32,145 nucleotides of DNA from positions 1 to 32,145 of the forward strand of contig NZ_JAUOEK010000090.1 of NCBI RefSeq assembly GCF_030540835.1, given 5' to 3'. Both the position numbers and the translations under genes were made by a program. The number at the start of each line of letters is the position of its first letter. Within the stretch, counting starts at the first letter, position 1. A model generated the notes under the pieces. It did no database searches, had not been told where the DNA came from, and saw only the letters and a list, made by a program, of their open reading frames with translations. This document shows, in pieces, positions 15,276 through 29,358 of the stretch. The stretch is from Flavivirga aquimarina (GTDB lineage: Bacteria; Bacteroidota; Bacteroidia; Flavobacteriales; Flavobacteriaceae).

Positions 15276-15308
15276 TCAAGTAAATACTAAAAGCGAATGT
15301 TTACTACT

Positions 15309-18300
15309 ATGAAAAATAAAATCACAAAAACACTGTTTTTTCTTTTGCTAATGCAAACGTACTTTTTAAGTGCCCAAGAGAAAACAAACTATAATTCTAC
15401 CGAAATAGAAGCTGTACTGGGAACAACAACGCCTTTGCAATATGTAACCACGAATCTGGATGTGGTAGGAATAGTTAAAAATACAAACCCTATGGGGTAT
15501 ATAAGCCTCTATATAAAAGAAAACGAGCCTCCAAATGATTGGTTTTCCTATACATTACGGTTAAATGTAACTCCAGCTTCGCTTTCTGGAGTATTTGATG
15601 GTACTTCTAAAGAAATTACCCTAAAAGTAGAACATAATACCCTCGCTGGAGCCATTGGTAGTTCAATAGATATAAGTAAACATATAGAAACAGGAGCTTA
15701 TGGTGTTAGTGTAGAGCTTATAGAAGGGATCTATACAGACTTATCCAATAGTGGTTCAACACCAGTTTCTAATGGTGCCGTACCAGCAAATATTGGTTTA
15801 GAGTTAGGGTTTAGTGCTACAACATTTACAGCCTTGTCGTCAACAATACCATTGGTTACATTGACTCCTCCTGTGCCTAATAGTAACGAGATACAACTCA
15901 ATTGGGATTCTATTGATGGTGCGATGTCTTATGATGTAGAATGGACATGGATAGACGGGTATGACGAAGATGAAACTATTTCACTAAGAGATCCAGAGAC
16001 CATTCCCTTTACAAAACACGATTTCGAACAAAACAGTACTCGGGTACAGACCTCAAACACAGCATACAGCATACCATTAATTTATGCTAAAGGCTATTTA
16101 ATTTATAGAGTAAGAGCTGTAGGAAGATTTTTAGAAGACACAAATGTTTATAGATATGGAGCGTGGAGTGAAGCAGAAGATGATAATTCAAATTTTCTAT
16201 CAGATTGGAATGCAGTATATCCTATAAGTGATGACCACCAAGTTGATAAAAACTGGCAATTTCAAGCATCTTATGCAGAAGAGGGAAAAAAGAAAGAAGT
16301 AGTGAGTTATTTTGATGGTACCCTGCGTAACCGTCAGACCGTAACAAGGATTAACTCCGACGATAACATTATTGTTGGCGAAGTTATTTACGATGCACAA
16401 GGAAGACCAGCTGTAGAAGTGTTGCCAGTACCTACCAACAGTGAAGCTATAGATTATACAGATAACTTTAATTTAAACACTATAGGAGATATTTATAGTT
16501 ATCAAGATTTTGATACAGACGACCTTAATATTTTAGATGAGGAAACCTTATTAAAAGGAATGAATACCTTAAATGGAGCCAGTAAATATTACTCATCAGT
16601 TAATGATGTAAACAGTGCGTTTAAAGATAGAATCCCAGATGCACAAAACCATCCTTTTTCTCAAATAGAATATATGCCAGATAATACAGGAAGAATTCTT
16701 AGAAAAGGAGGTGTAGGCATAGATCATCAATTAGGAAGTACCCACGAAATGGAGTATCATTACGGAACCCCAGAGCAAAAAGAGTTAAACCGTTTGTTTG
16801 GGTATAGTGTGGGGCATTTTTCACATTATAAAAAAAATACAGTAATAGACCCTAACAGGCAAGCCAGTATTAGTTATATCGATCCGCAAGGAAGAACCAT
16901 AGCAACTGCATTAGCCGGTATTTCACCAACCAATTTAGATGCTTTAGAAGATGAAATTGATGCCAATCAATTACTACATAAACGTGTTACCACAGATTTA
17001 TTAGGAAAACTAGATGCTTTAGCTACAGATACACCACAGGACAATAATATAAAACAGTCAACTCAAGCTTTTGGAGCACAAGAAGATGCATTAGTTTATT
17101 CTGCGACAAAACTTGCTGTAGAACCGTCTGAACTAGATTTCTCTTATACACTTCAAACAACAGATTTTGAGTATACATGTACAAGTGGTTTAGTTAATTA
17201 CCCAGTCGTTTACGATTTGTTTGTAGATGTATTAGACATAGAAGGGAATAGTCTGGTGTTAAATCGTGAAGATCCAACTTTTAACCTTGCAGACTTTTCG
17301 CTAGACGTACCAAGAGGAGCCTATAGTATTACAAAAAACTTAGTAGTAAATAAAAACACATTAGAAACCTATGCAGATGCATTTATAGATAAGTTAACAA
17401 CACCAGGTGATGCATGCTATATAGACCCAGAAGTAGTAGTGCCTGTTCCTGCAGAGATTATAAATGGTTGTTTTGTAAGCTGTGAAGATTGTGAAAGTTC
17501 ATTAATTGCAGAGTATGGTAATGCTATAGGTTATAGCAATGCTAAAATGGAAGATTACGATTTCACAGACCTAGAAGAGACCTTAACAACAGAAGAATTA
17601 GACGAAGAAAAAGCAAGATTAATTGTAGCTTTTAAAGAACAATGGGAACAACTTATTCTAGCCTGTAATGCCCCATGTACAGATGGTACCGATTTAGCAA
17701 ACCTTTCTTCAGAAAACATTGTAGCTAACTCCATGTCTTGTAATATAGCACGTACTGTATTATTAAACGATATGAAACCTACCGGGCAATACGGGCAATA
17801 TCTAAGTGTTTTAATAAATGAAGGAAATGGAGAAACAATAGATGAAGTTATACAAACCACGCTAAATATTTTTAATGAAGGAAACCGTTTAATTAGTACA
17901 GAAACAGACGATAGTCAAATTCGCAATAGCTGGCGTAATCCAAGGCATCCTAATGATCCATTGCCAAATGGAAACGAATTATATACCCAAGGGCATTACT
18001 ATAATACAGACGGCACCATAAGCTATATAAAAGTAAAAGAAACGACAGATGCAGATGGAAATAACACCTATACACCAGACATTCAATTAGGAATAGAGTT
18101 AATACCCGTTACAAAAAACACCAATAACGATGAGTATTTAGTAGAACCACAATATTTAGCCAATGTAGAAGATTTTATTGCTTCGGGTGTTTGGCAAGAC
18201 CAATGGGCAGAATCACTTATCGTATACCATCCAGAATATTGCTATTTACAATACGGAGAAGCTATTTGTGGCATTACTAATAATGTTACAACTGCTATAG

Positions 18301-21300
18301 GGAGTCCTTTAATGAATTCTGATGGTTACGATCAATATTTACGTCAATTAGACACCTATGCTAGTGCAGGTTCATTAGCAACTGGTACAACTATAATGAC
18401 TCAAGATCCATTTTTTAGCGGAGGTACTCCTTCAGAATTAAGTGCTATACAATTTAATTTACGAAACAGTATCATGTTCGAGGCACTTACCAAAAACTAT
18501 AATAATACAGGACTTAGTTTAGAAGAATATGCATTGGCAAATGTAACATGTAATAGTGTTACAGATTGTAATACAGAAGGATCAACCGTATCTATATTAA
18601 CAACAACTGCACAAAGAGATGAATATTGGGCTATTTATAAATCCAATTACAGTAATGTAAAACAAATGATCCAAACATTTTATGGTAATATCTATGCAGA
18701 AAGTAAAAACTGTTATAATGGATGTATTGGAGAAGAAGATAAACCTGTAAATCTATTATCGGTACTGGCCGATTTTAATGATGTAAACAAAAGCGGATTT
18801 GATGCAATTATAAAAGCAGGAGAAGATAAAATATGTAATAGTGATGTTGCGAGCGATTATACAACAAAAGAAAAACGCTTTAAACCATCAGATAATTTAT
18901 ACGATTCTGGACAAGATGCAGCAGATATCGTAAATGAATATGGAGAATATACAGGTTACGAGTATTATATACAAACAGGAGTATGCCCATTAGCAAGAGA
19001 TTTACAAATCTTTTTAGAGTCTTCATTTAACGATTTTGGAACCCAATCTCCTGGGATTTCTGGAGAGAGAGCATTTACAGGTAAATACTTAAGTAGGGAT
19101 TTGTATCAGGATTTAGGAGGGAATCTGGAAGAACTGCAACAACCGGGAGATGTTATGTTAACAAGCACACCTAATGGACTTAGCTTAGAATTAAGTTTTG
19201 GAGTAGGAGATATTCCAATAACAATAACACTACCAGATGGTACGCAAACATGGGATAATTATGGAGACGCGAATTGGGTCATTACTAAAGTAAGCCATAT
19301 TAAATCAGACTATGATGATGTAGCCGAAGTATTTACCTTTAAGGCAGTAGCTCAAGTACGTACTAGTTTTGTAGCTACAGATTACGAAGAAATTGTTATT
19401 AGTGGTACCACCCAAGCACGTATATCAGACTGTAGTGTTGTGCGAGACTCGGGAAGTGTAGGACAATATTTAGGTAACGGAGGAACTTCTGGTCCGTTAG
19501 GGTATTGTTCTGAAAAACAACGTTTTACGTACGCATTTTTAGAGCTTTTAAATGAGCTTTACAATGCTAGTAGCCTAAATACGACAGTCCCATTAAATAG
19601 TATTTCGGCCTATAGTAATAGTTATTTAAAAACCTTTTTTGGTGGTGGTACAGCAACATGGAGCAATACAGGAAATATGTATTTTATAGAAGTTGATGAT
19701 GTAAAACGCTTTATATTAGAGTTGGAAGAAAATGAAACTTTACCAATCATAGGTGTTGCCGATTTTACAGGGATGGGTTTAAGCTATGAATATAATGAAG
19801 AAGGGGTCATTACCAAGCAAAATGTTCGAATTACGTATTTAACGGAATCAGATAAAATTAAAGAAAATAAAATTGGAACGCTATCACAAGAAATTATAGT
19901 AGATGAACCATTGTTTAAAACTAAATTTTTCTTAAGAAAACAGATATCATATGGAGGCCTAACTGGAGATGGTTCTCAAGGAAATAGGCAATACTATAGA
20001 GATGTATATTTTACACCCAAAAATGTTGGAATTTTTCTTGATGAGCTTGCAGATATTCAGTTTAATATTAATTTCAATAATTATTCCACGGATCCTGCAG
20101 ATTATAGTACGGCTGAAATGATTATAAATGGGCAAAATTTTAAAATGTCCGATGGTACTTTAAAAGTTGATTTTATTGATGGTCTGGCGGAAGCATATCA
20201 ACATTTCCCTCAGACAAATCGTCTTTCTTGGAATAGATATTACGGTCAAACTTTTGATATTTATGATTTTTCATACAATATCAATAACAATGAACGCATT
20301 TTTAATTTAAATGAAGGAAATGGTGCTGCAATATCTACGAATGGTTTAGGAGTTATTAATGTAAATGAAAGTAGTTGGTTTACAGATCCTATTTTAGGTA
20401 CAGGATTAAAATTTGATAGCTCTTTAGAAGCAGGGTGGCTTGATTCCATTCCTTTCATTTATGAAGAAGGAGCTGTTATTAGCTTTAATGCTAGGATTAA
20501 ATTTCAGGACGAATTACCTTATCAGACTCCAAACGATAATTTTGGATTTATAGCACATATTGATTACGAAGACCCTGAGGATAGCGATAACCTATATGTG
20601 TTAATGGTTGCTGCTGATAAAGGAGATGAACCAATAGTACCATTTCCGGAACTATGCGATTCACCTCCCTTAGCATGTATTATACCAATACCAGATCCAG
20701 TAAGCTGCACAGACAAATATCCTATGTATGTAACGTTAATGAATACCATTAACGATAAAGAAGAAGACTTTGGAGAAGATTTAGCCGAGGATGAAGGAGA
20801 CATTGTAAGCGAAGAGGAGTTTTGTGCCAACTCGTACCAATATTTAGTAGACGATTACCAGTATTATATCACTACGTTTGGTATTACCAGTGTTTTAGAT
20901 TTAGACTATATATCTATAGCCCGTTTTGGAGCAACAGAATTTAATTATGGGTTTCCAGGCATTCAAGGTATTATAAACTTGTATCAAACCCATGTAACAA
21001 CTACAAGAGCCAATGCAGACGAGTATACTATGGATTGGGCTGCATTTACATCAAATTATTTAAACCAGCCAGAAAACAAGAGTACTTGTGTACCAGTACC
21101 CTTCCCTGTGAATTTTGATTCAGTAAATATAGACATCCCAGAAGAAACACCTTGCGAACAATTTTATGCCAGTGTTACCGCAGCATATTCTAAAGATGTT
21201 TATGATAATCTTATAGCCACCAAGCGAGAAGAATTTATAAATGCCTATTTAGAACACGCATTAAGTACGCCTGTAGAAACATTTAATATGGAGTACCCAG

Positions 21301-24300
21301 ACAAAGAATATCAATATACTTTGTATTACTACGACCAAGCAGGGAACCTATTACAAACCGTACCACCAGAAGGTGTAGATCGTTTTACCGAAGAAGAATT
21401 AGAAGCAGATGGAATACATAGTGCCATTAATTTACATAGAGAGAGTAACAATCCAAATGAAGACCTAACACTATTACCAGATCATGATTTAATAACAGAG
21501 TACCGTTACAACACCCTAAACCAATTGGTATGGCAATTAACTCCAGATGGAGGTGAAACACGTTTTGCATACGATGCATTAGGCCGAATTATAGCCTCAC
21601 AAAATGCCAAACAATTAGTAAATAACCGTTTTAGTTATACCAATTATGATGAACTTGGACGCATCGTACAATCCGGAGAGTTTGCGCCTAATACAACCGT
21701 TTCTATAGAAGAAACCACAGGTAAATTGGTTTATACAGCAGATGGAAGCTATGTAGAAACAGCTGATGATTCAAATCCATACCCTCTAAATATTTCAGAT
21801 ATATTGTACGAAGTAACAACAACTGGGTATGATAAATTAAAAGGACTAAACCCTACAGAAATTTTTGATACAGTAGACGATGACAACAATACCACAGATA
21901 ATACCCGTAACCGTGTAGCAGCTGTTTATTATTACGACCTTCGGGATTATGTTAATAATATAGGAACAAACTTAGCAAACTACAATAATGCCACGTTCTA
22001 TAATTACGACATACATGGTAACGTAAAAGAGTTAGTACAACACAATAAACTTATGGTTATAGATCTCAATAATTCCCAATCTGGAATGAAAAGGGTATTG
22101 TATGAGTATGATTTAATTAGTGGAAATGTAAATAAAGTAAGCTACCAAAATGGTAAACCAGATATGTTTGCACACCGCTATACCTACGATGCCGATAACC
22201 GTATCACTATGGTAGAAACCTCTAGCGATGGTATGATCTGGGAAAAAGACGCATCGTACCAATACTATGCACATGGACCACTAGCACGTACCGTACTAGG
22301 AGGTAAAGAAGTACAAGGTATGGATTATGCCTATACATTACAAGGTTGGTTAAAAGGTGTAAATTCCGAAACCATGTCATCAACAGACGATATGGGAACA
22401 GATGGTACAGCAACCTCTCTAGTGGCAGAAGATGCGATGGGCTATTCGTTAAGTTATTTTGATGGTGATTACCAACCTATAAGTTCATTAGGAAATACAT
22501 TTAGTTATAGTACCACTAATACAGTGACAGACCCAGCGGCAACAGCAGGTAGAAATTTGTATAATGGTAATATTAAGCAAATGGTAACAAGTCTGTTAGA
22601 TAACGATGAAAACTTGCTAAGCTCGCAGTTAAACAACTATGGATACGATCAATTAAATAGAATTAAAACCTATAGTGGTAGCAGTATAAGTGGAGGAGGA
22701 GCGCCTACAGATAGTTACTCTGCAGATTATACCTACGATCGTAATGGAAACTTAAAAACACTTAATCGTTCAACCCTTAACAGCAATGGTGATGTTGTAG
22801 GAATGGATCAGTTAACTTACGATTATAAAACCAAACTAAACCCAGACACAGGACTCCAAGAACGCACCAACCAATTAGACGATGTACAAGACGCTTTAGG
22901 AGATACAGGATTTAATGATCTGGCAACACAAGACGATGGAAACTATGTATATGATGAAATTGGACAATTAATTAGTGATGCAGAGGAAAATTTAACTAAT
23001 ATAGAGTGGCGTGTAGATGGTAAAGTAAAGGCAATAACTAAAAATGTATCGGGCACAGAAAACGTTATAAAATTCCAATACGATGGGTTAGGAAACCGTA
23101 TCTCTAAAACCGATGTAGCAGACAGTAAAACCACCTTATATGTTAGAGATGCACAAGGCAATGTATTGGCAGTATATAATAGCGATTCTGTGGGTGATAT
23201 AGTAATTCCAGAATACCCATTCGATATTGCGCATAATAATATACAAGTAGCAGATACGCAAAGCTTTAGTGCCGTAAAGACCATTACCTCTAACAACACA
23301 ACAACAGAAAACACGGTAGAGGCAACAGGGAATTTAAGCTATATAGCGGGAGAAAGCATAACACTGTTACCTAATTTCCATGTCAAATCAGGAGGTGTAT
23401 TTACAGCTAAAATAGAAGAAGTAAGTAATAGTGGAGGAGAAGATGGTATGTTCTTAACCGAACACCATATATTTGGAAGTTCGCGATTAGGATTAGAACA
23501 AAAGAATTTGGAAATTACCGAAGAACCTATTACTTTAGGCGAAACGATCTTTGAAAATAAAGTTGGTGATAAACGCTATGAGCTTAGTAACCATTTAGGT
23601 AATGTATTAAGTGTGGTTACAGACCGAAAATTAATAGACCCTAATGGGCTTTTAAAACCTGATGTAGTTGCTTATAATGATTACTATCCTTTTGGCCAAC
23701 TGCTACCTAATAGGCATGGTAGTAGTGATAGCTATAGATATGGGTTTAACGGTAAAGAAAAGGATGACGAGTTAAAAGGAGAAGGGAATAGTTATGACTT
23801 TGGAGCTAGATTTCAAGACCCTCGCATTGGTAGATGGTTTAGTACAGACCCTGTAATTAAAGCAAACAAAAGTTCTTATCAATTTGGAGGAAATAGTCCA
23901 ATAGCTAATGTCGACCCAGATGGAAAAGATGAATTTTACTTTAACTTTATAACGGGTAAAATTATTTATAGACCAACACTCGGACCAAATAAATACTATG
24001 CAATATATCCGAAAGGGCTAACAAATGGTGAAAAGGATATTATAATTCCATTAAATCCACATGGCTTTGGTAAAGTAAATGGGTTTCTAGATGGAACGGC
24101 AAAGGGAGATGTAACCTTTACTCATACTAACGATATTTTCATTACTTGGCCTTTTCACAAAGATTACAAAGATTCTCATTTTACAACACTAGCAAAATTA
24201 GTAAAAGGAAATCCCTCTCTTGCGGAATTAATGAAAAGAAGCCCACATGAAGAAGATAAATCTTTAATTGGTCTTATACAAGCTCAAAATACATTATTAG

Positions 24301-24782
24301 ATATTGAGTCTGCCATAAAAACAAGTATTAATGTCGCTTTTGCAGCAAAGGCATTTATTGATTTAATAGAAGTATCACCTGCTATAATATCAAAAATTAA
24401 GAATTTTAAAGGTTCTAAATCAGCAAGTGTAAGAGGTATAAGTGGAACATCGTATTCAACTGAGCAGTTAGCAAAAGCAATAACCCCAATTGAAGGAGAT
24501 ATTGAAGTAGTTAAACTATATAGAGGGATATCTGGTACAGAAGGAACGACAGGCTTGTATTTAACTGAATCAGCAGAATATGCGGCTGCTTATGCTAATG
24601 GAGGACAAGTTGTTGAATATACAGTGTCTAGGTATGGTATGTACTTGTTGAAGAATGAAGGATTTATTTTTACCAAAACAGGAAGATATACTGGGGCAGC
24701 ATCTCAAGCAAATGCAAGTGAATTGTTAATTGAAAATAAAGAGATTATAAATGTATTTTTAGATAATTCAGTGAAAAAATAA
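15309..24782 (+). CDS. RHS-repeat polymorphic toxin with putative ADP-ribosyltransferase-type C-terminal tip
   Basis: The ATG at 15309 is preferred over the in-frame one at 15297 because it begins a normal signal peptide (MKNKITKTLFFLLLMQ...SAQ), giving 3157 aa. In order there is an FN3-like strand set (about 180-270), a DUF6443-like region with YFDGTLRNRQTVT and YDAQGRPAVEVL (about 310-465), a long Cys-containing middle (GCFVSCEDC near 720), and YD repeats (about 2000-2640, for example YRYNTLNQLVWQLTPDGGE). A small three-strand insert follows (GESITLLPNFHVKSGGVFTA, about 2650-2705), then the RHS core (SNHLGNVLSVVTD, YDFGARFQDPRIGRWFSTDP, SYQFGGNSPIANVDPDG). The 285-residue tip after DPDG (from base 23925) has a hydrophobic helical part, then LYRGISG (Arg 3072), GLYLTESAEYAAAYANGG and ASELLIENKEI (Glu 3138). 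This pattern fits an R-S/T-E ADP-ribosyltransferase fold. The shell should enclose the toxin until delivery. An immunity candidate follows after 5 bp. The RHS identity is firm; the tip enzyme class is tentative. Confidence 0.9.
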   Translation: MKNKITKTLFFLLLMQTYFLSAQEKTNYNSTEIEAVLGTTTPLQYVTTNLDVVGIVKNTNPMGYISLYIKENEPPNDWFSYTLRLNVTPASLSGVFDGTSKEITLKVEHNTLAGAIGSSIDISKHIETGAYGVSVELIEGIYTDLSNSGSTPVSNGAVPANIGLELGFSATTFTALSSTIPLVTLTPPVPNSNEIQLNWDSIDGAMSYDVEWTWIDGYDEDETISLRDPETIPFTKHDFEQNSTRVQTSNTAYSIPLIYAKGYLIYRVRAVGRFLEDTNVYRYGAWSEAEDDNSNFLSDWNAVYPISDDHQVDKNWQFQASYAEEGKKKEVVSYFDGTLRNRQTVTRINSDDNIIVGEVIYDAQGRPAVEVLPVPTNSEAIDYTDNFNLNTIGDIYSYQDFDTDDLNILDEETLLKGMNTLNGASKYYSSVNDVNSAFKDRIPDAQNHPFSQIEYMPDNTGRILRKGGVGIDHQLGSTHEMEYHYGTPEQKELNRLFGYSVGHFSHYKKNTVIDPNRQASISYIDPQGRTIATALAGISPTNLDALEDEIDANQLLHKRVTTDLLGKLDALATDTPQDNNIKQSTQAFGAQEDALVYSATKLAVEPSELDFSYTLQTTDFEYTCTSGLVNYPVVYDLFVDVLDIEGNSLVLNREDPTFNLADFSLDVPRGAYSITKNLVVNKNTLETYADAFIDKLTTPGDACYIDPEVVVPVPAEIINGCFVSCEDCESSLIAEYGNAIGYSNAKMEDYDFTDLEETLTTEELDEEKARLIVAFKEQWEQLILACNAPCTDGTDLANLSSENIVANSMSCNIARTVLLNDMKPTGQYGQYLSVLINEGNGETIDEVIQTTLNIFNEGNRLISTETDDSQIRNSWRNPRHPNDPLPNGNELYTQGHYYNTDGTISYIKVKETTDADGNNTYTPDIQLGIELIPVTKNTNNDEYLVEPQYLANVEDFIASGVWQDQWAESLIVYHPEYCYLQYGEAICGITNNVTTAIGSPLMNSDGYDQYLRQLDTYASAGSLATGTTIMTQDPFFSGGTPSELSAIQFNLRNSIMFEALTKNYNNTGLSLEEYALANVTCNSVTDCNTEGSTVSILTTTAQRDEYWAIYKSNYSNVKQMIQTFYGNIYAESKNCYNGCIGEEDKPVNLLSVLADFNDVNKSGFDAIIKAGEDKICNSDVASDYTTKEKRFKPSDNLYDSGQDAADIVNEYGEYTGYEYYIQTGVCPLARDLQIFLESSFNDFGTQSPGISGERAFTGKYLSRDLYQDLGGNLEELQQPGDVMLTSTPNGLSLELSFGVGDIPITITLPDGTQTWDNYGDANWVITKVSHIKSDYDDVAEVFTFKAVAQVRTSFVATDYEEIVISGTTQARISDCSVVRDSGSVGQYLGNGGTSGPLGYCSEKQRFTYAFLELLNELYNASSLNTTVPLNSISAYSNSYLKTFFGGGTATWSNTGNMYFIEVDDVKRFILELEENETLPIIGVADFTGMGLSYEYNEEGVITKQNVRITYLTESDKIKENKIGTLSQEIIVDEPLFKTKFFLRKQISYGGLTGDGSQGNRQYYRDVYFTPKNVGIFLDELADIQFNINFNNYSTDPADYSTAEMIINGQNFKMSDGTLKVDFIDGLAEAYQHFPQTNRLSWNRYYGQTFDIYDFSYNINNNERIFNLNEGNGAAISTNGLGVINVNESSWFTDPILGTGLKFDSSLEAGWLDSIPFIYEEGAVISFNARIKFQDELPYQTPNDNFGFIAHIDYEDPEDSDNLYVLMVAADKGDEPIVPFPELCDSPPLACIIPIPDPVSCTDKYPMYVTLMNTINDKEEDFGEDLAEDEGDIVSEEEFCANSYQYLVDDYQYYITTFGITSVLDLDYISIARFGATEFNYGFPGIQGIINLYQTHVTTTRANADEYTMDWAAFTSNYLNQPENKSTCVPVPFPVNFDSVNIDIPEETPCEQFYASVTAAYSKDVYDNLIATKREEFINAYLEHALSTPVETFNMEYPDKEYQYTLYYYDQAGNLLQTVPPEGVDRFTEEELEADGIHSAINLHRESNNPNEDLTLLPDHDLITEYRYNTLNQLVWQLTPDGGETRFAYDALGRIIASQNAKQLVNNRFSYTNYDELGRIVQSGEFAPNTTVSIEETTGKLVYTADGSYVETADDSNPYPLNISDILYEVTTTGYDKLKGLNPTEIFDTVDDDNNTTDNTRNRVAAVYYYDLRDYVNNIGTNLANYNNATFYNYDIHGNVKELVQHNKLMVIDLNNSQSGMKRVLYEYDLISGNVNKVSYQNGKPDMFAHRYTYDADNRITMVETSSDGMIWEKDASYQYYAHGPLARTVLGGKEVQGMDYAYTLQGWLKGVNSETMSSTDDMGTDGTATSLVAEDAMGYSLSYFDGDYQPISSLGNTFSYSTTNTVTDPAATAGRNLYNGNIKQMVTSLLDNDENLLSSQLNNYGYDQLNRIKTYSGSSISGGGAPTDSYSADYTYDRNGNLKTLNRSTLNSNGDVVGMDQLTYDYKTKLNPDTGLQERTNQLDDVQDALGDTGFNDLATQDDGNYVYDEIGQLISDAEENLTNIEWRVDGKVKAITKNVSGTENVIKFQYDGLGNRISKTDVADSKTTLYVRDAQGNVLAVYNSDSVGDIVIPEYPFDIAHNNIQVADTQSFSAVKTITSNNTTTENTVEATGNLSYIAGESITLLPNFHVKSGGVFTAKIEEVSNSGGEDGMFLTEHHIFGSSRLGLEQKNLEITEEPITLGETIFENKVGDKRYELSNHLGNVLSVVTDRKLIDPNGLLKPDVVAYNDYYPFGQLLPNRHGSSDSYRYGFNGKEKDDELKGEGNSYDFGARFQDPRIGRWFSTDPVIKANKSSYQFGGNSPIANVDPDGKDEFYFNFITGKIIYRPTLGPNKYYAIYPKGLTNGEKDIIIPLNPHGFGKVNGFLDGTAKGDVTFTHTNDIFITWPFHKDYKDSHFTTLAKLVKGNPSLAELMKRSPHEEDKSLIGLIQAQNTLLDIESAIKTSINVAFAAKAFIDLIEVSPAIISKIKNFKGSKSASVRGISGTSYSTEQLAKAITPIEGDIEVVKLYRGISGTEGTTGLYLTESAEYAAAYANGGQVVEYTVSRYGMYLLKNEGFIFTKTGRYTGAASQANASELLIENKEIINVFLDNSVKK
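23925..24779 (+). other. Variable toxin tip of the RHS protein (ART-like)
   Basis: This is the 285-codon segment after the DPDG motif that ends the RHS core. The first ~110 residues form an unknown beta-rich part (GKIIYRPTLGPNKYYAIYP). A hydrophobic helix follows (SINVAFAAKAFIDLIEVSP) that could help membrane passage, then a compact C-terminal domain with the order Arg (LYRG), small-residue strand (GLYLTES), helix (AEYAAAYA), strand (QVVEYTV) and Glu (ASELLI). That order matches ADP-ribosyltransferase-fold toxins. No H-E-x-x-H, nuclease HNH or deaminase motifs were seen. The enzyme assignment is inference. Confidence 0.45.
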
Positions 24783-24787
24783 TAATT

Positions 24788-25057
24788 ATGAAATTTTGTT
24801 GCGATAAATTTAAAAGTGATTGGAATTTTCCGAGAAATGTTGGTCTAAATATAAGGGTTTCAAAATTTCACCCTAGAGACTTTAATTTTCTCATAAAAAA
24901 AGAAATGTATCGCTTTTATATTACTTCAGGGTATAAAGATAATACAAAAGCTGAACCAAATTTAGTTATAGCTCATTGCCCTTATTGTGGAACAAATTTG
25001 TTTAAATATTACAAGGATGACTATTACATCAATGAATCTAAAGAATATTTTTTATAG
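24788..25057 (+). CDS. Small four-cysteine protein, candidate immunity protein
   Basis: This 89-aa cytoplasmic protein has no signal peptide. It carries Cys4-Cys5 at the N-terminus and a CPYCG knuckle (Cys64, Cys67), so the four cysteines could bind one zinc ion. It starts 5 bp after the toxin stop codon, the usual immunity position in polymorphic toxin loci, and is short and more AT-rich than the toxin. Proteins of this look (CC...K, ...CP(F/Y)CG.NL) are familiar beside Bacteroidota RHS genes, but I can name no family. If the toxin is an ADP-ribosyltransferase, this protein would be expected to block its active site. Immunity function is inferred from position alone. Confidence 0.7.
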   Translation: MKFCCDKFKSDWNFPRNVGLNIRVSKFHPRDFNFLIKKEMYRFYITSGYKDNTKAEPNLVIAHCPYCGTNLFKYYKDDYYINESKEYFL

Positions 25058-25076
25058 ATTAAATATAGAAACCATT

Positions 25077-25328
25077 ATGATTAAGTTGAGAAAATTATTT
25101 GTTTTCTTGTCAGTATGTCTCATCATTTATTTATTATTTTACGTTTACAGTAATTTTTATAAACTCTACTTGTTGTATACAAAAATCACTGAATTATTTT
25201 TTGTGAACGATTTAGAGATTCCTACTACCGAATTAACTTTGATTGTTGCAAATGTTTTAGGTTGGTTATCTATTCCTGTAATAATATTTTTATTGATAAG
25301 GTTTATAATAAAAAATTATCCCCGCTAG
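25077..25328 (+). CDS. Small two-helix membrane protein, function unknown
   Basis: The start at ATG 25077 gives 83 aa. It avoids the overlap with the immunity candidate that the longer frame (from 24987) would need. Two hydrophobic segments are visible: VFLSVCLIIYLLFYVY (about residues 9-24) and LIVANVLGWLSIPVIIFLLI (about 53-72). The C-terminus is odd: the last two codons (Pro-Arg) and the TAG stop lie inside the first REP-like element (from 25320), so the original 3' end was probably replaced or fused when the REP arrived. It lies 19 bp after the 89-aa gene and may share its transcript. It could be a second immunity protein of the membrane type or an unrelated remnant. Confidence 0.55.
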   Translation: MIKLRKLFVFLSVCLIIYLLFYVYSNFYKLYLLYTKITELFFVNDLEIPTTELTLIVANVLGWLSIPVIIFLLIRFIIKNYPR

Positions 25329-25401
25329 CGCTCGACTGTGTCCCCAGCTAGTCCTCGTATGCGCTAGCGCTTCGTCTATGACGAGTGCCGTACTGAGTAA
25401 G
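25320..25401 (+). repeat. REP-like element A (truncated short copy plus full long copy)
   Basis: A1 (25320-25341) is a truncated short-type element (CGCTAGCGCTCGACTGTGTC). It is followed directly by A2 (25342-25401), a full long-type element: CTAGTCCTCGTATGCGCTAG, then CGCTTCGTCTATGACGAG, TGCCGTA and GAGTAAG. A2 can fold the hairpin TTCGTC-TAT-GACGAG. The element overlaps the stop codon of the upstream gene. Confidence 0.9.
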
Positions 25402-25429
25402 CAAGAGAGTAGTAACAGAATAAAAATAG

Positions 25430-25462
25430 AAAAAGCTTTTACAGGGATGTAAAGGCTTTTTT
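25430..25462 (+). terminator. Probable intrinsic terminator of the RHS operon
   Basis: The arms AAAAAGCTTTTACA and TGTAAAGGCTTTTTT form a near-complete stem around GGA, and the 3' arm ends in a run of seven T. It lies just past REP A and about 100 bp after the last operon gene, so it is well placed to end the RHS-immunity transcript. Confidence 0.65.
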
Positions 25463-25496
25463 TAGTTTTAAGAGTAGGCCTGCTTGGTTTTAAAGT

Positions 25497-25539
25497 CCCC
25501 CGCTAGCGCTCGACTGTGTCGGGTGCCATATTGAGTAAG
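25497..25539 (+). repeat. REP-like element B (short type)
   Basis: Short-type copy: CCCCGCTAGCG, then the hairpin CTCGAC-TGT-GTCGGG, then TGCCATA and GAGTAAG. Both stem arms differ from the long-type copies yet still pair, which is compensatory change. Confidence 0.9.
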
Positions 25540-25588
25540 CAAAGTAAATAATAAACATTAATGATACAAAACGGGTATATCTTTTATG

Positions 25589-25648
25589 CCCCTGCTAGTC
25601 CTCGTATGCGCTAGCGCTTCGTCTTTGACGAGTGCCGTATTGAGTAAG
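25589..25648 (+). repeat. REP-like element C (long type)
   Basis: Full long-type copy: CTAGTCCTCGTATGCGCTAG, then the hairpin TTCGTC-TTT-GACGAG, TGCCGTA and GAGTAAG. It is nearly identical to A2 apart from the loop and flanking bases. Confidence 0.9.
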
Positions 25649-25750
25649 TAAAACAGGATTAAAATAATAAAAAAGAAAGCTTTTTTACTGAGCCAACTAG
25701 TGGGCTTCGTTTGTAGGATAAGTGTTAAATATAAGAAATTAAAATAAATT
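25649..25750. other. Gene-free spacer with two small inverted repeats
   Basis: No gene is visible here. A weak terminator-like hairpin (AAAAAAG loop CTTTTTT) lies at 25669-25686. An imperfect palindrome, AGCCAACTAGTGGGCT, lies at 25691-25706. The whole stretch 25329-26144 lacks a credible CDS; the 64-codon frame at 25931-26125 runs through REP D and I do not accept it. Confidence 0.5.
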
Positions 25751-25928
25751 AAGAAAGAAGCTATTTTAGAAATAGAGTAGCTTCACTATTTATAGCTTTT
25801 AACATTGAAAAGTATTAGTTTCTTTGGTATATGTTGTAGTAGAACAAAACATCATAAATCAATAATATTTTTAACTAAACATCTATAAATTTACTCATAA
25901 GTATATTTTTTGTTTAACTATAATTAAT
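25751..25928 (+). repeat. Duplicated noncoding segment, copy 1
   Basis: About 178 bp match 28320-28497 at roughly 75-80 percent by eye, including ATAGAGTAGCTTCACTATTT, ATAGCTTTTAACA and GGTATAT.TTGTAGTA. It opens with a hairpin at 25757-25784 (GAAGCTATT / AGTAGCTTC). It has no open frame. It may be a regulatory or terminator segment, or the remnant of a mobile element. Confidence 0.8.
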
Positions 25929-26033
25929 ATTTGATGGTTAAAGCCAAGCAAAAAAATGTTAAAAATGAACAGCTTTTTGTATTTACTAACTATTTAATTA
26001 ATAAATTGTCAAAATTGGTTTTAGATATAAAGC

Positions 26034-26095
26034 CCCCAGCTAGTCCTCGTATGCGCGCTAGCGCTTCGTCTATGACGAGTGCCGTACCGAGTAAG
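26034..26095 (+). repeat. REP-like element D (long type), upstream of the RAYT gene
   Basis: Full long-type copy with a 2-bp expansion in the centre (GCGCGCTAGCGC), the hairpin TTCGTC-TAT-GACGAG, TGCCGTA and GAGTAAG. It ends 49 bp before the transposase ATG and is in the same orientation as that gene. Confidence 0.92.
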
Positions 26096-26099
26096 ACAA

Positions 26100-26131
26100 T
26101 AAAAAACTATACTATAAAGGTATAGTTTTTT
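26100..26131 (+). terminator. Perfect hairpin with T-run just before the RAYT start
   Basis: AAAAAACTATAC and GTATAGTTTTTT pair perfectly around a 7-base loop, and the T-run ends about 13 bases before the ATG at 26145. As a terminator it would stop read-through into the transposase gene; as an RNA hairpin it could also limit translation. It leaves almost no room for a separate promoter. Confidence 0.7.
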
Positions 26132-26144
26132 GTATTTTAGAGCC

Positions 26145-26702
26145 ATGAGCAGAAAATACAAGTTCCATAACAAAGGCGGTTTATATTTTGTAAGCTTCGC
26201 AACCGTTTATTGGCTAGATGTATTTATAAGGCAAATATATTTTAATGTATTAGCAGAAAGCATAGACTATTGCAGAAAAGAAAAAGGTATGGAATTATAT
26301 GCATATTGTTTTATGCCGAGTCATATTCATCTAATGTTTAGATCCAGTGATGAACGACCTATGGAATTATTGAGAGATTTTAAAAAACATACAGCAAAAA
26401 AAGTAATAGAAACAATAGAAAACAACCCACAAGAAAGCCGAAAAAAATGGTTATTATGGATGTTTGAAAGAGCAGGGAAAAAGCAAGGTAATGTTACAAA
26501 ATATCAGTTTTGGCAGCATCATAATAAGCCTATAGAATTATGGAGTGAGAAGGTTATTAAACAAAAAATAGATTATATTCATAATAACCCAGTAGAAAGT
26601 GGTTTTGTAACCAGTGCTATAGATTGGAAATACTCAAGTGCAAAGAATTTTCAAGAAGACCATAGTATATTAGAGATAGATGATGCAGGGTTTTTAGGGT
26701 AA
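26145..26702 (+). CDS. REP-associated tyrosine transposase (RAYT, Y1/HUH family)
   Basis: This is a 185-aa protein from the ATG at 26145; a TTG at 26130 would add five residues but lies in the hairpin. It shows the Y1-transposase HUH site His60-Ile-His62 in CFMPSHIHLMF. A RAYT-type FWQHHNKPIEL segment follows (from about 122), and the catalytic-tyrosine candidate Tyr144 lies in DYIHNNPVESGFV. The length fits stand-alone RAYTs, which nick and join single-stranded REP hairpins and are usually single-copy, domesticated genes. It is flanked by REP D (same orientation, 49 bp upstream) and REP E (inverted, about 56 bp downstream), the usual RAYT-REP arrangement. All key residues are present, so it is probably active. 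It is best read as the enzyme responsible for the REP copies in this window. Confidence 0.9.
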   Translation: MSRKYKFHNKGGLYFVSFATVYWLDVFIRQIYFNVLAESIDYCRKEKGMELYAYCFMPSHIHLMFRSSDERPMELLRDFKKHTAKKVIETIENNPQESRKKWLLWMFERAGKKQGNVTKYQFWQHHNKPIELWSEKVIKQKIDYIHNNPVESGFVTSAIDWKYSSAKNFQEDHSILEIDDAGFLG

Positions 26703-26758
26703 GGCTAATTTAAAAGTCACTCTATTTCTGAGGTAAAGTAGTTTGTTAAATGTTTTTC

Positions 26759-26800
26759 TTACTCATTTCGGCACTCGTTATAAACGAGCGCTAGCAGGGG
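26759..26800 (-). repeat. REP-like element E (short type, inverted)
   Basis: Read on the minus strand it is CCCCTGCTAGCG, then the hairpin CTCGTT-TAT-AACGAG (perfect 6-bp stem), TGCCGAA and ATGAGTAAG. It is the only inverted copy in the window and, with D, brackets the transposase gene. Confidence 0.9.
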
Positions 26801-26871
26801 AATCGAGAAGTTCAAACACGTGAAATTGATAATACCGAAGTTAAAAAGGAAAACCCATAAAGATTTAAAAG

Positions 26872-27282
26872 ATGAGAATAATTATTTTAACTCTACTATT
26901 AGTTGTTTTTTCGTGTACGGAGAGCGAAGATATTATTTTTAAGAAGTTTAAAGGTCAGTGGTCTATATCTGAAATTAAGTATAATAATTTAAATTATAAG
27001 GATTATTTAAATAGCAATGTTTTAATTTTAAAAAAGAATAATGAAATATCAATTCCTGAAACGGTTCATTTTAATGAAGATAGATTCTCGTTTTGGAGTT
27101 TTAAATTAGATCAGGAGAACCAAGTATTATTGAATATTGAATCTTCAAATCATGCTTTTAGAGGTGTGTTTAATGTAGAATTCATTAAAGATGAAAAAAA
27201 AAAATTAGCAGGAATGATTCTTAAATCTGATTCAATTTATATTAAAGCATATAAGCTTTTGCAAAATTATAATGATTGGTAG
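26872..27282 (+). CDS. Small lipoprotein, orphan immunity or cargo candidate
   Basis: This 136-aa protein has a short lipoprotein signal (MRIIILTLLLVVFSC; lipid-bearing Cys15). The residues after the cysteine are acidic (TESED), as in Bacteroidota signals that send lipoproteins to the cell surface. The mature part begins FKKFKGQWSISEIKY and continues in beta strands (FSFWSFKLDQ, QVLLNIESS, AFRGVFNVEFI), reminiscent of small lipocalin-like proteins, but I recognise no family. It is isolated between REP E and REP F, and F starts 4 bases after its stop codon. No toxin gene is adjacent, so an orphan immunity role is a guess from context. Confidence 0.7.
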   Translation: MRIIILTLLLVVFSCTESEDIIFKKFKGQWSISEIKYNNLNYKDYLNSNVLILKKNNEISIPETVHFNEDRFSFWSFKLDQENQVLLNIESSNHAFRGVFNVEFIKDEKKKLAGMILKSDSIYIKAYKLLQNYNDW

Positions 27283-27286
27283 TCAT

Positions 27287-27345
27287 CCCCGCTAGTCCTC
27301 GTATACACTAGCGCTTCGTCTGTGACGAGTGCCGTATCGAGTAAG
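27287..27345 (+). repeat. REP-like element F (long type)
   Basis: Long-type copy with point changes: CTAGTCCTCGTATACACTAG, then the hairpin TTCGTC-TGT-GACGAG, TGCCGTA and GAGTAAG. It begins 4 bases after the stop codon of the lipoprotein gene. Confidence 0.9.
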
Positions 27346-27406
27346 TAAAATGGGGTGAGGAGAATAAAATATGAGCTAAAAAAGAAAAAAAAGGAGTGAT
27401 ATAATA

Positions 27407-27523
27407 ATGGTACTATTTTTAGTTATTCTTTTTGTAAGTGCTGTAGAATCAATGGAAAAAGATTTTCAGGAAATAGATTCGAAATTAAAAGCACATAAAA
27501 AAAATGGAAATAAAAGTTCTTAA
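27407..27523 (+). CDS. Possible 38-aa membrane or leader peptide
   Basis: ATG 27407 opens a 38-codon frame with a hydrophobic start (MVLFLVILFVSAVES) and a charged end (KLKAHKKNGNKSS). It has one of the best Shine-Dalgarno sites in the window (AAGGAG, 10 bases upstream), unusual for this organism, and ends 17 bp before the next lipoprotein gene. It could be a translated leader, a toxin-antitoxin type peptide, or the decayed end of a larger gene. No homologue is recognised. Confidence 0.35.
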   Translation: MVLFLVILFVSAVESMEKDFQEIDSKLKAHKKNGNKSS

Positions 27524-27540
27524 TAATTAAAGAGAAAAAG

Positions 27541-28257
27541 ATGAATTTAAAATATATTTTATTGGTAATTATTTTAGCGTTATACATAAATTGTATAGAA
27601 AAGAATGAAGAAACTAAAAAAGACTATGAACATGAAGTATTAGAAAAAAAGGTTGTGTTAGAAGAAAAAACACCTAAGCCGTCTTTGGATAAGGAACAAT
27701 TTGTTATCTCAAAAGAAAAATTAGAAGGATATAAAATGAAATCTAATCAGCATATTGGCCTAATAGATCAAAATGATGATGTATTGGATATTGGAGCCTC
27801 AGGGAAAATAGTTTATTATCCCTTTGGCGTAAAATCTTTTGCAGATAGTATAAATATTAAACAAAATAACATCTTTACCAAGGATACAATTGATTCATTA
27901 AACGAAAATTTTAGGGATTATTTATTATCATTTAAAGAATCTAAGATAAAAATTAGAGAGTATAAAAAAGATTATTTTCCAGATGGAGAAGACAAATTAG
28001 CAGAATATCATCATCAAAAACAGGATTTATCTGTAATATTAGAAGCCAAATTGTATAATTCAGAAATTGCATTAATTGACAATATTAGAGTAGGCATGAG
28101 TAAAGAAGAGTTTTTTGCTGTTATTATAGGGGATTATGATGATGATTTAAAAAGAATCAATACGATAATATTAGGCGATATGATTGGAAATATGTCACAA
28201 TTTTACAAATTTAAAAATGATTCCTTGTTTGAAGTTGTTTTTAAGTTAGAGAATTAG
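27541..28257 (+). CDS. Lipoprotein of unknown function, orphan immunity or cargo candidate
   Basis: This 238-aa protein has a lipoprotein signal (ILLVIILALYINC; Cys18). An acidic and lysine-rich linker follows (EKNEETKKDYEHE...KKVVLEEK). The mature part is mixed alpha/beta with GLIDQNDDVLDIGASGKIVY in the middle and NIRVGMSKEEFFAVI then FYKFKNDSLFEVVFKL at the end. The latter pair resembles a BamE/BLIP-like unit (a helix after 'GMSKEE', then strands). The charge after the cysteine suits surface display. It lies between REP F with the small ORF and the degenerate REP G, which begins about 5 bases after its stop. No family name is justified, and an immunity role is inferred only from the location. 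Confidence 0.7.
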   Translation: MNLKYILLVIILALYINCIEKNEETKKDYEHEVLEKKVVLEEKTPKPSLDKEQFVISKEKLEGYKMKSNQHIGLIDQNDDVLDIGASGKIVYYPFGVKSFADSINIKQNNIFTKDTIDSLNENFRDYLLSFKESKIKIREYKKDYFPDGEDKLAEYHHQKQDLSVILEAKLYNSEIALIDNIRVGMSKEEFFAVIIGDYDDDLKRINTIILGDMIGNMSQFYKFKNDSLFEVVFKLEN

Positions 28258-28261
28258 ACTT

Positions 28262-28316
28262 CCTCCGCTAGTCCCCGCTAGTCCCCGCTAGTACTCGTTT
28301 GTAACTAGTACTTATC
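28262..28316 (+). repeat. Degenerate REP-like element G with tandem 10-mers
   Basis: The 10-mer GTCCCCGCTA (REP left edge) is tandemly repeated here, with a variant copy before it and GTA after it. A decayed short-type hairpin follows, CTCGTT-TGT-AACTAG, with one mismatch. It starts about 5 bases after the preceding stop codon. Confidence 0.75.
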
Positions 28317-28319
28317 GAA

Positions 28320-28497
28320 AAAAGAAGTTACTTTAACAATAGAGTAGCTTCACTATTTATAGCTTTTAACACTAAAAGCATTAATTTTTTTGGTATATAT
28401 TGTAGTAAAACAAAGCATTATAAATCAATAACTACTTTTAACAAAAACATATTGATTTTACTTATAGGTATATTTTTATTTAATAATAGTTAAAATT
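28320..28497 (+). repeat. Duplicated noncoding segment, copy 2
   Basis: This is the partner of 25751-25928. The opening hairpin at 28324-28351 (GAAGTTACT / AGTAGCTTC) keeps all nine pairs, but its G-U wobble is at a different position from copy 1. No open frame exists. As in copy 1, it lies among REP elements. Confidence 0.8.
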
Positions 28498-28510
28498 AAA
28501 TCATTAAACG

Positions 28511-28572
28511 TCTCAGCTAGTCCTCTTATATGTTAGTACTTTAGTCTTTGATAAGTACCGTAGTCGAGTAAA
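28511..28572 (+). repeat. Degenerate REP-like element H (long type, AT-drifted)
   Basis: It aligns end to end with A2, C and D but has mostly lost its CpG and GC-rich core: CTAGTCCTCTTATATGTTAG, then TACTTTAGTCTTTGATAAG, TACCGTA and GAGTAAA. Most changes are C-to-T or G-to-A, and the hairpin no longer pairs well. Confidence 0.8.
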
Positions 28573-28599
28573 TAAAGGCTTTGTCTCGTCCAAATAAAG

Positions 28600-28629
28600 T
28601 TTACATCCCAATAGTATCGGGACTGTAAA
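28600..28629. other. Interrupted palindrome / hairpin
   Basis: TTTACATCCC and GGGACTGTAAA pair with one bulge around AATAGTATC. There is no T-run, so it is not a clear terminator. It may be a protein-binding palindrome or an old element end. The rest of 28573-28752 holds no gene and no convincing promoter. Confidence 0.45.
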
Positions 28630-28752
28630 AGATTTACAACTTATACTTTATACATAATAATTAAGGATTACCCTTATACATATCATGGTGTACCCTTTGC
28701 TAGCTATTAGATGCTTTTTTTAGCTTTAATAAAACTTTAACAAGTCATTTTT

Positions 28753-29358
28753 ATGAAGCTTTTAAAAAGGAGTTTTTCCCCAATATTCTTTATATTATTA
28801 CTACTGGTATTCAGTGTATTGATATCATGCAATAAATCTTCAAAATCTAATAAACTTCCAGAATACAAATTTTTTAATTTTCAACAGCAAGGCTGGAAAT
28901 CGAAGTGTGTCACACATTTTGTTAACGATATAAATTACACAGCCACAGAAGTTCCAATACAATACTATTTTCTAAAGAATAACCAAAGTAATTATAATAA
29001 AGTAGATTCATTATATCAATTAAATGCAAAAGAGCGTATTATAGAAATAGAGTTTCAGCATGCAAATGCAGCAGATTTATTACTAGAAGACTACACAGAT
29101 AAAACCTACAAAGAAGCAGTAAAGTACATGGCATTTATCTTAGAAAAAGACTTTACGGTAGTAACTTCTTCAAAAGATACCATTCGTTGTTCCGGTGTAA
29201 ACTTCGAACGCAACTTTAAAGTAGCTCCCTTTAAACGCGTGTTACTCTATTTCAATAATATCAATCCCAACGATCATATAAAACTCATATACCAAGATCA
29301 TTTGTTTAAAAATGGGATCATAAAATTCAATTTAATAGATAAACCATTAAAAATTTAA
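28753..29358 (+). CDS. Lipoprotein of unknown function heading the second operon
   Basis: This 201-aa protein has a lipoprotein signal (IFFILLLLVFSVLISC; Cys26). Basic and serine-rich residues follow the cysteine (NKSSKSNK), unlike the two upstream lipoproteins, so it is more likely retained facing the periplasm. The mature part has YKFFNFQQQGWKSKCVTHFV, ERIIEIEFQHANAADLLLED and a C-terminal strand set (RVLLYFNNINPNDHIKLIYQ). I recognise no family. It starts only 4 bp before the FN3/tail gene and after the REP-rich zone, so it looks like the first gene of a new transcription unit. A helper role for export or anchoring of the following proteins is a guess. Confidence 0.75.
   Translation: MKLLKRSFSPIFFILLLLVFSVLISCNKSSKSNKLPEYKFFNFQQQGWKSKCVTHFVNDINYTATEVPIQYYFLKNNQSNYNKVDSLYQLNAKERIIEIEFQHANAADLLLEDYTDKTYKEAVKYMAFILEKDFTVVTSSKDTIRCSGVNFERNFKVAPFKRVLLYFNNINPNDHIKLIYQDHLFKNGIIKFNLIDKPLKI

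What the first reader, a model, noticed from the sequence alone, without database searches (positions are those of the whole stretch)
25320..28572. RAYT transposase and a family of at least nine REP-like elements inside the cargo zone of an RHS toxin locus
Within about 3.3 kb there are long-type (A2, C, D, F, H) and short-type (A1, B, E, G) REP-like copies plus an intact RAYT gene. REPs alternate with small genes (membrane protein, lipoprotein, small ORF, lipoprotein). RAYT-REP systems are known, mostly from gammaproteobacteria; their coupling to polymorphic-toxin immunity arrays in Bacteroidota would be new to me. REPs could serve as recombination sites that exchange toxin tips and immunity genes.
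Basis: partly seen in the sequence, partly recalled or inferred. Interest (0 to 1): 0.85.

Follow-up and report, generated by a model that had tools for sequence, protein, structure and literature searches.

The report
REP hairpins capping Rhs toxin–immunity cassettes
In marine flavobacteria, small DNA hairpins and the transposase that goes with them often sit just behind the toxin and immunity genes of Rhs weapon loci, where they appear to mark the ends of the gene cassettes that get swapped.

Summary
The finding holds and reaches beyond this window. The window has an intact REP-associated transposase (RAYT) between inverted REPs, six clear REP copies, one half copy and two decayed ones. In 12 genomes of the genus (Flavivirga) this REP is low copy and concentrated behind Rhs tips: 55 of 114 pattern matches fall in 0.7% of the DNA. 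So are RAYTs: 12 of 22 close matches, against 3 of 100 matches to two other transposase domains. Of 80 RAYT relatives in Flavobacteriaceae, 38 have an Rhs core upstream on the same strand. In 27 of 44 REP-bearing Rhs zones the first REP follows exactly one gene, often at its stop codon. In one genome, loci with unrelated cassettes become 96-99% identical where the REP starts; in another organism, near-identical REP dimers separate cassettes; in F. jejuensis a REP-RAYT-REP module stands at three sites behind Rhs tips. My reading: REPs mark the 3' borders of exchangeable Rhs cassettes and RAYT spreads them. Against: 22 of 66 Rhs zones lack REPs, most homology breaks lie elsewhere, and no strain series was available. 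Whether RAYT itself moves cassettes is open. My searches found no paper on the coupling.

The parts
15297..24782 (+). rhs gene (3161 aa): RHS repeats, Rhs-associated core (aa 2796-2876), variable C-terminal tip
24788..25057 (+). first gene after the tip, 89 aa, candidate immunity gene by position (DUF6980 match below cut-off)
25080..25328 (+). small ORF that reads like a membrane protein (no family match); its stop codon lies inside REP A1
25320..25342 (+). REP A1, 5' half copy identical to the first 23 nt of B
   Evidence: family D2
25342..25401 (+). REP A2, long type
   Evidence: 56.7 bits
25498..25539 (+). REP B, short type
   Evidence: 43.3 bits
25589..25648 (+). REP C, long type
   Evidence: 58.6 bits
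25649..26033 (+). linker between REP C and D; long matches only in the F. jejuensis rhs zone (three, 92-95%) and, partial, at 28318-28508 of the window
25757..25784 (+). terminator-like hairpin in the linker
   Evidence: 2 such sites found in 24700-29000, 1.0 expected
26034..26095 (+). REP D, long type, upstream border of the RAYT module
   Evidence: 54.9 bits
26130..26702 (+). RAYT (REP-associated tyrosine transposase); likely start ATG 26145
26758..26800 (-). REP E, short type, inverted, downstream border of the RAYT module
   Evidence: 59.5 bits; DNA fold z -4.1
26872..27282 (+). small cargo gene, lipoprotein-like by eye, no family match
27287..27345 (+). REP F, long type, 4 nt after the stop of 26872-27282
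   Evidence: 52.8 bits
27541..28257 (+). cargo gene, lipoprotein-like by eye; a piece matching its 3' end abuts REP E in contig C129
28263..28321 (+). REP G, decayed, 5 nt after the stop of 27541-28257
   Evidence: 7.4 bits, not significant alone
28510..28575 (+). REP H, decayed long type
   Evidence: 11.1 bits, not significant alone

Best explanation
In Flavobacteriaceae a RAYT and its REPs have become associated with Rhs polymorphic-toxin loci. A REP, or a pair of REPs with a linker, caps the 3' end of the tip-immunity unit. Each exchangeable cassette then has a conserved left border (the Rhs core coding sequence) and a conserved right border (the REP). Recombination between these repeats can add, delete, reorder or swap a tip together with its immunity gene. 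RAYT, encoded in some of these zones beside or between REPs, spreads REPs and its own REP-RAYT-REP module by single-strand HUH chemistry, in cis or in trans. Shown here: genome-wide enrichment, position after the first gene behind the tip, strand bias, abutment to stop codons, sharp homology boundaries at REP edges, near-identical REP dimers between cassettes, one module at three sites. Inferred: that RAYT binds and cuts these REPs, that recombination at REPs is what exchanges cassettes, that the genes behind the tips are immunity genes, and that the arrangement is selected.
For: Enrichment: 55 of 114 pattern REPs, and 79 of the 150 listed model REPs (283 found), lie 0-6 kb downstream of an Rhs core, zones making up about 0.7% of the DNA; 50 of 55 and 75 of 79 on the rhs strand. 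RAYT matches of at least 70% identity and over 350 nt: 12 of 22 in those zones, 0 of 22 on the upstream side. Controls: DDE_Tnp_1 2 of 67, rve 1 of 33. Family-wide: 38 of 80 RAYT loci have an Rhs core upstream on the same strand; 3 loci (two of them among the 38) have a convergent rhs downstream; none of the 80 shows an rhs with its 5' side facing the RAYT within the about 6 kb seen. The rhs label changes 15 times on a tree of 62 RAYTs, at least 6 forced by starred branches. Position: 44 of 66 rhs zones have a REP, after exactly one ORF in 27 and two in 10; 4 of 128 REPs inside ORFs. REP within 30 nt of a stop in 20 of 53 pairs, 6.1 expected. Boundaries: five loci of one genome, left 160 nt 54-62% identical, right 300 nt 96-99%, switching where the REP starts. 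L172: 182-193-bp REP dimers, 98-100% identical, at four places between unrelated genes, three within about 5 nt of a stop codon. F. jejuensis: a 743-bp REP-RAYT-REP unit at three sites, 99% identical, flanks different by eye.
Against: 46 of the 150 listed REPs lie neither near rhs nor near a RAYT; 37 loci away from rhs hold no Rhs core, and of 20 genes scanned in seven of them 11 match families with no evident toxin role and 9 match none. 22 of 66 rhs zones have no REP. 10 of 22 close RAYTs lie elsewhere; G007 has no RAYT in an rhs zone although its rhs zones are rich in REPs. Only 59 of 269 block ends are at a REP, 32 in both loci; of these 32, 11 come from G007 and 11 involve duplicated G011 loci, so independent events are few, and the null is lenient. 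A 698-bp block shared by two F. jejuensis rhs zones does not end at a REP. Two of five covariation measures are within shuffles. A REP on both sides of the RAYT was found in 31 of 80 relatives, on at least one side in 65. The rhs label is mildly clustered on the RAYT tree (16 of 500 shuffles as low). The REP-plus-linker may itself be one mobile repeat. No strain-level comparison was possible.
Confidence: 0.55

Rival explanations
1. 3'-UTR role: REPs are kept because as RNA hairpins they end or protect the toxin-immunity transcript; breakpoints at REPs only reflect that cassettes end where the transcript ends.
For: Same-strand bias (75 of 79), first REP after one ORF in 27 of 44 zones, abutment to stop codons, conserved stem.
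Against: The window hairpins carry no T tract, and separate terminator-like hairpins were found at 25757 and 28324. It does not explain RAYTs in the same zones, near-identical REP dimers or the RAYT module at three sites. Stem pair 12-31 is G-U in 70 of 73 copies, A-U in 3, never G-C, which hints at recognition of one strand rather than plain stability.
Confidence: 0.25
2. The mobile unit is the longer REP-linker repeat or the whole orphan-core cassette, spread by ordinary homologous recombination at the Rhs core; the REP is only its passive outer edge.
For: In five G007 loci the shared part is REP-REP-linker, about 300-355 nt; long matches to the window linker occur only in rhs zones of two species.
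Against: Different lineages carry different linkers but the same REP family at the same place.
Confidence: 0.2
3. Neutral harbour: the 3' zones of rhs loci are disposable DNA where any mobile element survives; REPs and RAYT only accumulate there.
For: RAYT fragments lie in the zones; contig C129 ends in a DDE_Tnp_1 fragment beside its REP; REPs and RAYTs also exist elsewhere.
Against: Two other transposase domains are rare there (3 of 100) while RAYT is common (12 of 22; Fisher p 1.7e-8, matches treated as independent). Strand bias and placement after the first gene are not expected of random survivors. The link recurs in the family. Only two control domains were tried.
Confidence: 0.15

Closest known systems
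RAYT / TnpA-REP with REPs (NF047646); perhaps subclass 2.6 = RAYT group 5 of Bacteroidetes (PMC6006769, passages and section 25 seen)
   Same: HUH transposase with WQ and YIHxNP motifs, flanked by hairpins, copies elsewhere in the genome
   Different: The word Rhs does not occur in that paper's main text; here REPs are few and concentrated behind Rhs tips, and one genome has the module at three sites
GTAG- and CGTC-tagged REPs (PMC3733652, abstract and passages seen)
   Same: Short imperfect palindromes with a conserved unpaired tag, mostly intergenic
   Different: Tag here is GAGTAAG; low copy and clustered; Rhs does not occur in that paper's main text
Rhs loci with orphan tips and displaced immunity genes (recalled)
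   Same: Main rhs, orphan cores with tips, small genes behind them
   Different: Cassettes here often end at REPs or REP dimers
Repeats around T6SS clusters and effector loci in Neisseria (PMC10210955, passages seen: CREE, dif sites; its reference list names a paper on porA deletion by recombination between REP clusters, title only seen)
   Same: Short palindromic or recombination repeats around secretion and effector gene clusters; REP-REP recombination has a precedent
   Different: Other repeats; no RAYT in the passages seen
Integron cassette arrays with attC hairpins (recalled)
   Same: Layout: gene followed by folded repeat, in arrays
   Different: The enzyme present is an HUH transposase; no integron integrase was searched for; cassette recombination not shown

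Membership tests
RAYT (REP-associated tyrosine transposase) | Matches the curated family model over cut-off | tested here: met
   NF047646 87 bits, cut-off 80; IS200 model 23.4, cut-off 55
RAYT (REP-associated tyrosine transposase) | HUH motif and catalytic-tyrosine motif conserved | tested here: met
   HxH in 61 of 62, WQ in 62 of 62, YIxxNP in 61 of 62 frames; 19 of 81 frames dropped as broken or odd length. That the Tyr lies in YIxxNP is read from the motif table of PMC6006769
RAYT (REP-associated tyrosine transposase) | Gene flanked by REPs | tested here: met
   REP D upstream and inverted REP E downstream in the window. Of 80 relatives, upstream REP in 62, inverted downstream REP in 34, both in 31, either in 65
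RAYT (REP-associated tyrosine transposase) | RAYT binds and cleaves its REP | not testable with these tools
   needs purified protein
RAYT (REP-associated tyrosine transposase) | REPs dispersed in high copy over the genome (usual gammaproteobacterial pattern, recalled; not a strict requirement) | tested here: not met
   9-69 model matches per genome (lower bounds), concentrated at rhs zones
Subclass 2.6 / RAYT group 5 | Motifs NH[LIV]H, WQ, YIH[QN]NP (PMC6006769 table) | tested here: inconclusive
   WQ 62 of 62, YIH[QN]NP 53 of 62, but SHxH 58 and NHxH 3 of 62; no tree with that subclass was built
GTAG or CGTC REP superfamily | GTAG or CGTC unpaired tag at one end | tested here: not met
   tag GAGTAA[GA] in 73 of 73, though the selecting pattern required it
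Rhs polymorphic toxin locus | Rhs core, variable tip, adjacent small gene | tested here: met
   toxin and immunity function not testable here
Integron-like cassette system | Dedicated enzyme that recombines folded repeat sites to move cassettes | not testable with these tools
   only the layout resembles it; no integrase search was run

The most novel reading that the evidence does not exclude
RAYT is a dedicated cassette mobiliser for polymorphic toxins: it recognises REP hairpins on single-stranded DNA at the ends of tip-immunity units and cuts and rejoins them, so that toxin-immunity cassettes are captured, shuffled and lost at rhs loci much as integrons handle attC cassettes, but with an HUH transposase.
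Probability: 0.17. Interest if true: 0.93.

Novelty: new variant of a known kind. Interest (0 to 1): 0.74.

Why it matters
How an Rhs tip is exchanged together with its immunity gene, so that the cell is not killed, is only half understood: the left border (the Rhs core) is obvious, the right border is not. A repeated hairpin with its own transposase at that right border gives a concrete, testable candidate. It would also give RAYTs, whose benefit to the host is debated (recalled), a possible role beyond their own spread.

Tried and rejected
Even spread of REPs over the genome: rejected. One ancestral RAYT-rhs event: not supported, 15 changes on the tree, shuffled mean 18.9. A known Rfam family: no match at E up to 0.1 in window 24700-29000. 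REP as a plain terminator: no T tract; separate terminator-like hairpins (2 found, 1.0 expected). REP or RAYT loci away from rhs as hidden Rhs arrays: no Rhs core at E up to 1 in 37 such loci, 20 REP and 17 RAYT loci. Of 20 genes scanned in seven of these loci, 11 match families with no evident toxin role (among them an AbiH phage-defence gene and a group II intron maturase) and 9 match none. Fold energy is weak evidence for most copies (z -0.1 to -2.0 for seven of the eight copies folded on their own strand; only REP E is strong, z -4.1). C103 RAYT: a different one, 41% identical; by blastn only its RAYT matched the window zone, no REP. Papers: RAYT + Rhs, 0; with repetitive extragenic palindromic, 0; polymorphic toxin + tyrosine transposase, 0; polymorphic toxin + repetitive extragenic palindrom, 2, of which PMC10210955 has the phrase only in its reference list and PMC12024412 was seen in the listing only. 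(the last: 42 papers, 10 listed) gave nothing on the coupling in what I saw.
Full report
What is there. The window is contig C80 of a 5.29-Mb genome. ORF 15297-24782 is an Rhs protein. Behind its tip lie two small genes, then half REP A1, REPs A2, B and C, a linker, REP D, a RAYT, inverted REP E, a small gene, REP F, another gene and decayed REPs G and H. The RAYT passes the curated REP_Tyr_transpos cut-off.

The REP. An alignment of 73 distinct copies from the genus and other Flavobacteriaceae gives a 9-pair stem with a short loop, a 5' GCTA and a 3' tag GAGTAAG. 98.4% of cells pair (83.2% shuffled); the covariation score is 0.368 (0.126 shuffled, at most 0.07 slid). Pairs with changes on both sides (5 against 3.7) and further pair types (10 against 8.8) are within the shuffles. 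One pair is G-U in 70 of 73 and A-U in 3, never G-C. The copies were chosen by a pattern that fixes part of the 3' arm and the tag, so conservation there is built in; the 5' arm was free. Long-type copies have extra bases before this hairpin.

Where REPs are. A pattern from the window copies matched 114 times in 12 genus genomes, 3 to 31 per genome, against 4 for the reversed pattern. By nearest Rhs core, 55 of 114 lie 0-6 kb downstream, 50 on the rhs strand; 5 lie just upstream of a core, 25 far from one, 29 on contigs without one. The zones are about 0.70% of the DNA, from rounded genome sizes (58 of 114 if any core counts). Contig C3 of G011 repeats part of its C2, so four of these matches are second copies; without them it is 51 of 110. 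The model R1 found 283 (lower bounds); of the 150 listed, 79 are in zones (75 same strand), 6 just upstream of a core, 19 near a RAYT away from rhs, 46 neither. R1 was trained partly on rhs-zone copies, so the pattern result is the cleaner one. The binomial p (2.5e-86) treats clustered copies as independent and means only 'very strong'.

Where RAYTs are. I tallied 61 of the 65 RAYT rows (four weak fragments, none near rhs by their coordinates, were left out): 30 of 61 lie in zones. For at least 70% identity and over 350 nt it is 12 of 22 (some are neighbouring or partial copies), none on the upstream side; for under 55% identity, 2 of 9. All NF047646 matches: 15 of 47. Controls in the same genomes: DDE_Tnp_1 2 of 67, rve 1 of 33. 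Eleven of 12 genomes have a RAYT or remnant of at least 40% identity in an rhs zone; G007 has none. In named genomes the best 80 of 204 relatives were kept; 9 of the 80 lie on contigs of the same 12 genomes. 38 of 80 have an Rhs core upstream on the same strand, the nearest at 1.2-5.5 kb; 72 had at least 2 kb of upstream sequence. Three loci, two of them among the 38, have a convergent rhs downstream. On a tree of 62 intact RAYTs the label changes 15 times, at least 6 on starred branches; shuffled mean 18.9, 16 of 500 as low.

Fine position. Of 83 rhs core hits, 68 loci remained after removing overlaps and 66 of these are 3 kb or longer; L127 and L128 are identical and both counted. 44 of 66 have a REP within 6 kb; between the tip and the first REP lie one ORF (60 aa or more) in 27, two in 10, none in 4, three or four in 3. 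4 of 128 REPs fall inside ORFs. Of 53 gene-to-REP pairs 20 are within 30 nt of the stop codon, 6.1 expected from gap lengths. In the window and in L087 the stop codon of the ORF before the REP lies inside the REP.

Borders. In G007 (Flavivirga sp. 57AJ16) five loci share a segment that begins where a REP starts: 160 nt to the left align at 54-62% (about what unrelated AT-rich DNA gives under global alignment; a judgement, no shuffle was run), 300 nt to the right at 96-99%. Four of the five have a tip and small genes before the REP; the fifth (L126) has only a cut-short core. Of 16 tips and small genes from the four, plus 7 from L172, two pairs hit at E 1e-3, both weak (34% over 80 aa, 30% over 181 aa). 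In three loci (L071, L087, L096) the segment is REP, second REP, linker, then an orphan Rhs core with another tip, another small gene and another REP. In L172 (uncultured Flavobacteriaceae) the order is tip1, gene, dimer, gene, dimer, core2/tip2, gene, dimer, core3/tip3, gene, dimers, RAYT; the dimers are 98-100% identical and three abut stop codons. Over all loci, 59 of 269 ends of non-RAYT homology blocks are within 20 nt of a REP in at least one locus and 32 in both; nulls 5.9% and 0.11%. Of the 32, 11 are G007 pairs, 11 involve the duplicated G011 loci, 3 are window against F. jejuensis and 7 are others. The null is lenient because a shared repeat extends alignments. Own genome: C80 and C129 share the RAYT module (769 nt, 96%), and in C129 the outer edge of REP E abuts a piece matching window 28177 onwards, the 3' end of the gene 27541-28257.

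Mobility. In F. jejuensis a 743-bp REP-RAYT-REP unit stands at three sites with 99% identity, ends at the REP edges and flanks that differ by eye, all behind rhs tips, two in the same zone. In L163 a short ORF whose start matches a longer copy further on ends inside the REP beside the RAYT. The window linker is 92-95% identical to copies in the F. jejuensis rhs zone while the RAYT regions of the two are 81% identical: exchange between species, or constraint on the linker.

Mechanism. Shown: association, position, orientation, sharp borders, one module at several sites. Inferred: RAYT recognises the hairpin on one strand and mobilises REPs through single-stranded DNA (as recalled for E. coli TnpA-REP); repeated REPs then act as right-hand homology arms while the Rhs core is the left-hand arm, so tip and immunity move together. 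The 3'-UTR role is a serious rival and can hold at the same time.

Known and new. RAYTs flanked by atypical hairpins are described for Bacteroidetes (PMC6006769, section 25). My searches found no paper that joins RAYT or REP with Rhs. The parts are known; the coupling is, as far as these searches go, new. Hence 'new variant of a known kind'. On checking, some statements were narrowed (flanking REPs, the fifth G007 locus, duplicated G011 loci, genes beside distant REPs); none changes the odds.

Noticed in passing
L254 (G011:C3, 19220 bp) against L255/L256 (G011:C2:310001-348000): C3 carries the same region as C2 but with an about 8.3-kb inner segment (both tips, small genes, REPs, a RAYT remnant) inverted between inverted Rhs cores (71% identical over 168 bp), so the long rhs frame meets the other tip. 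Could be an invertible tip switch or an assembly variant.
   Followed up: partly
L022 end (C101) and L018 end (C129): Second rhs locus of the genome: ankyrin-repeat gene after the tip, REPs, then a half REP that abuts sequence recurring in other rhs zones (92% over 144 nt in L129, ends of 35-39 nt in L077, L070, L183). C129 ends in a DDE_Tnp_1 fragment next to REP-RAYT-REP. The two contig ends may be one locus interrupted at a REP; not shown.
   Followed up: partly
L019:8954-9095 (C64): REP with an 89-nt RAYT fragment away from rhs, beside hairpin-like repeats of another sequence type.
   Followed up: no
window 6888-14531 and 687-6875: Giant LRR/Ig-like protein (2547 aa) and a 2062-aa protein with a TSP3 match below cut-off, upstream of a LolA3-family gene and rhs.
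   Followed up: no
L070 (G005:C28:540921-549921): Several broken RAYT fragments behind one rhs tip.
   Followed up: no
G009:C27, G008:C2, G010:C26: Series of Rhs-core ORFs, most of them short (orphan tips), about 1.2-7.7 kb apart.
   Followed up: no
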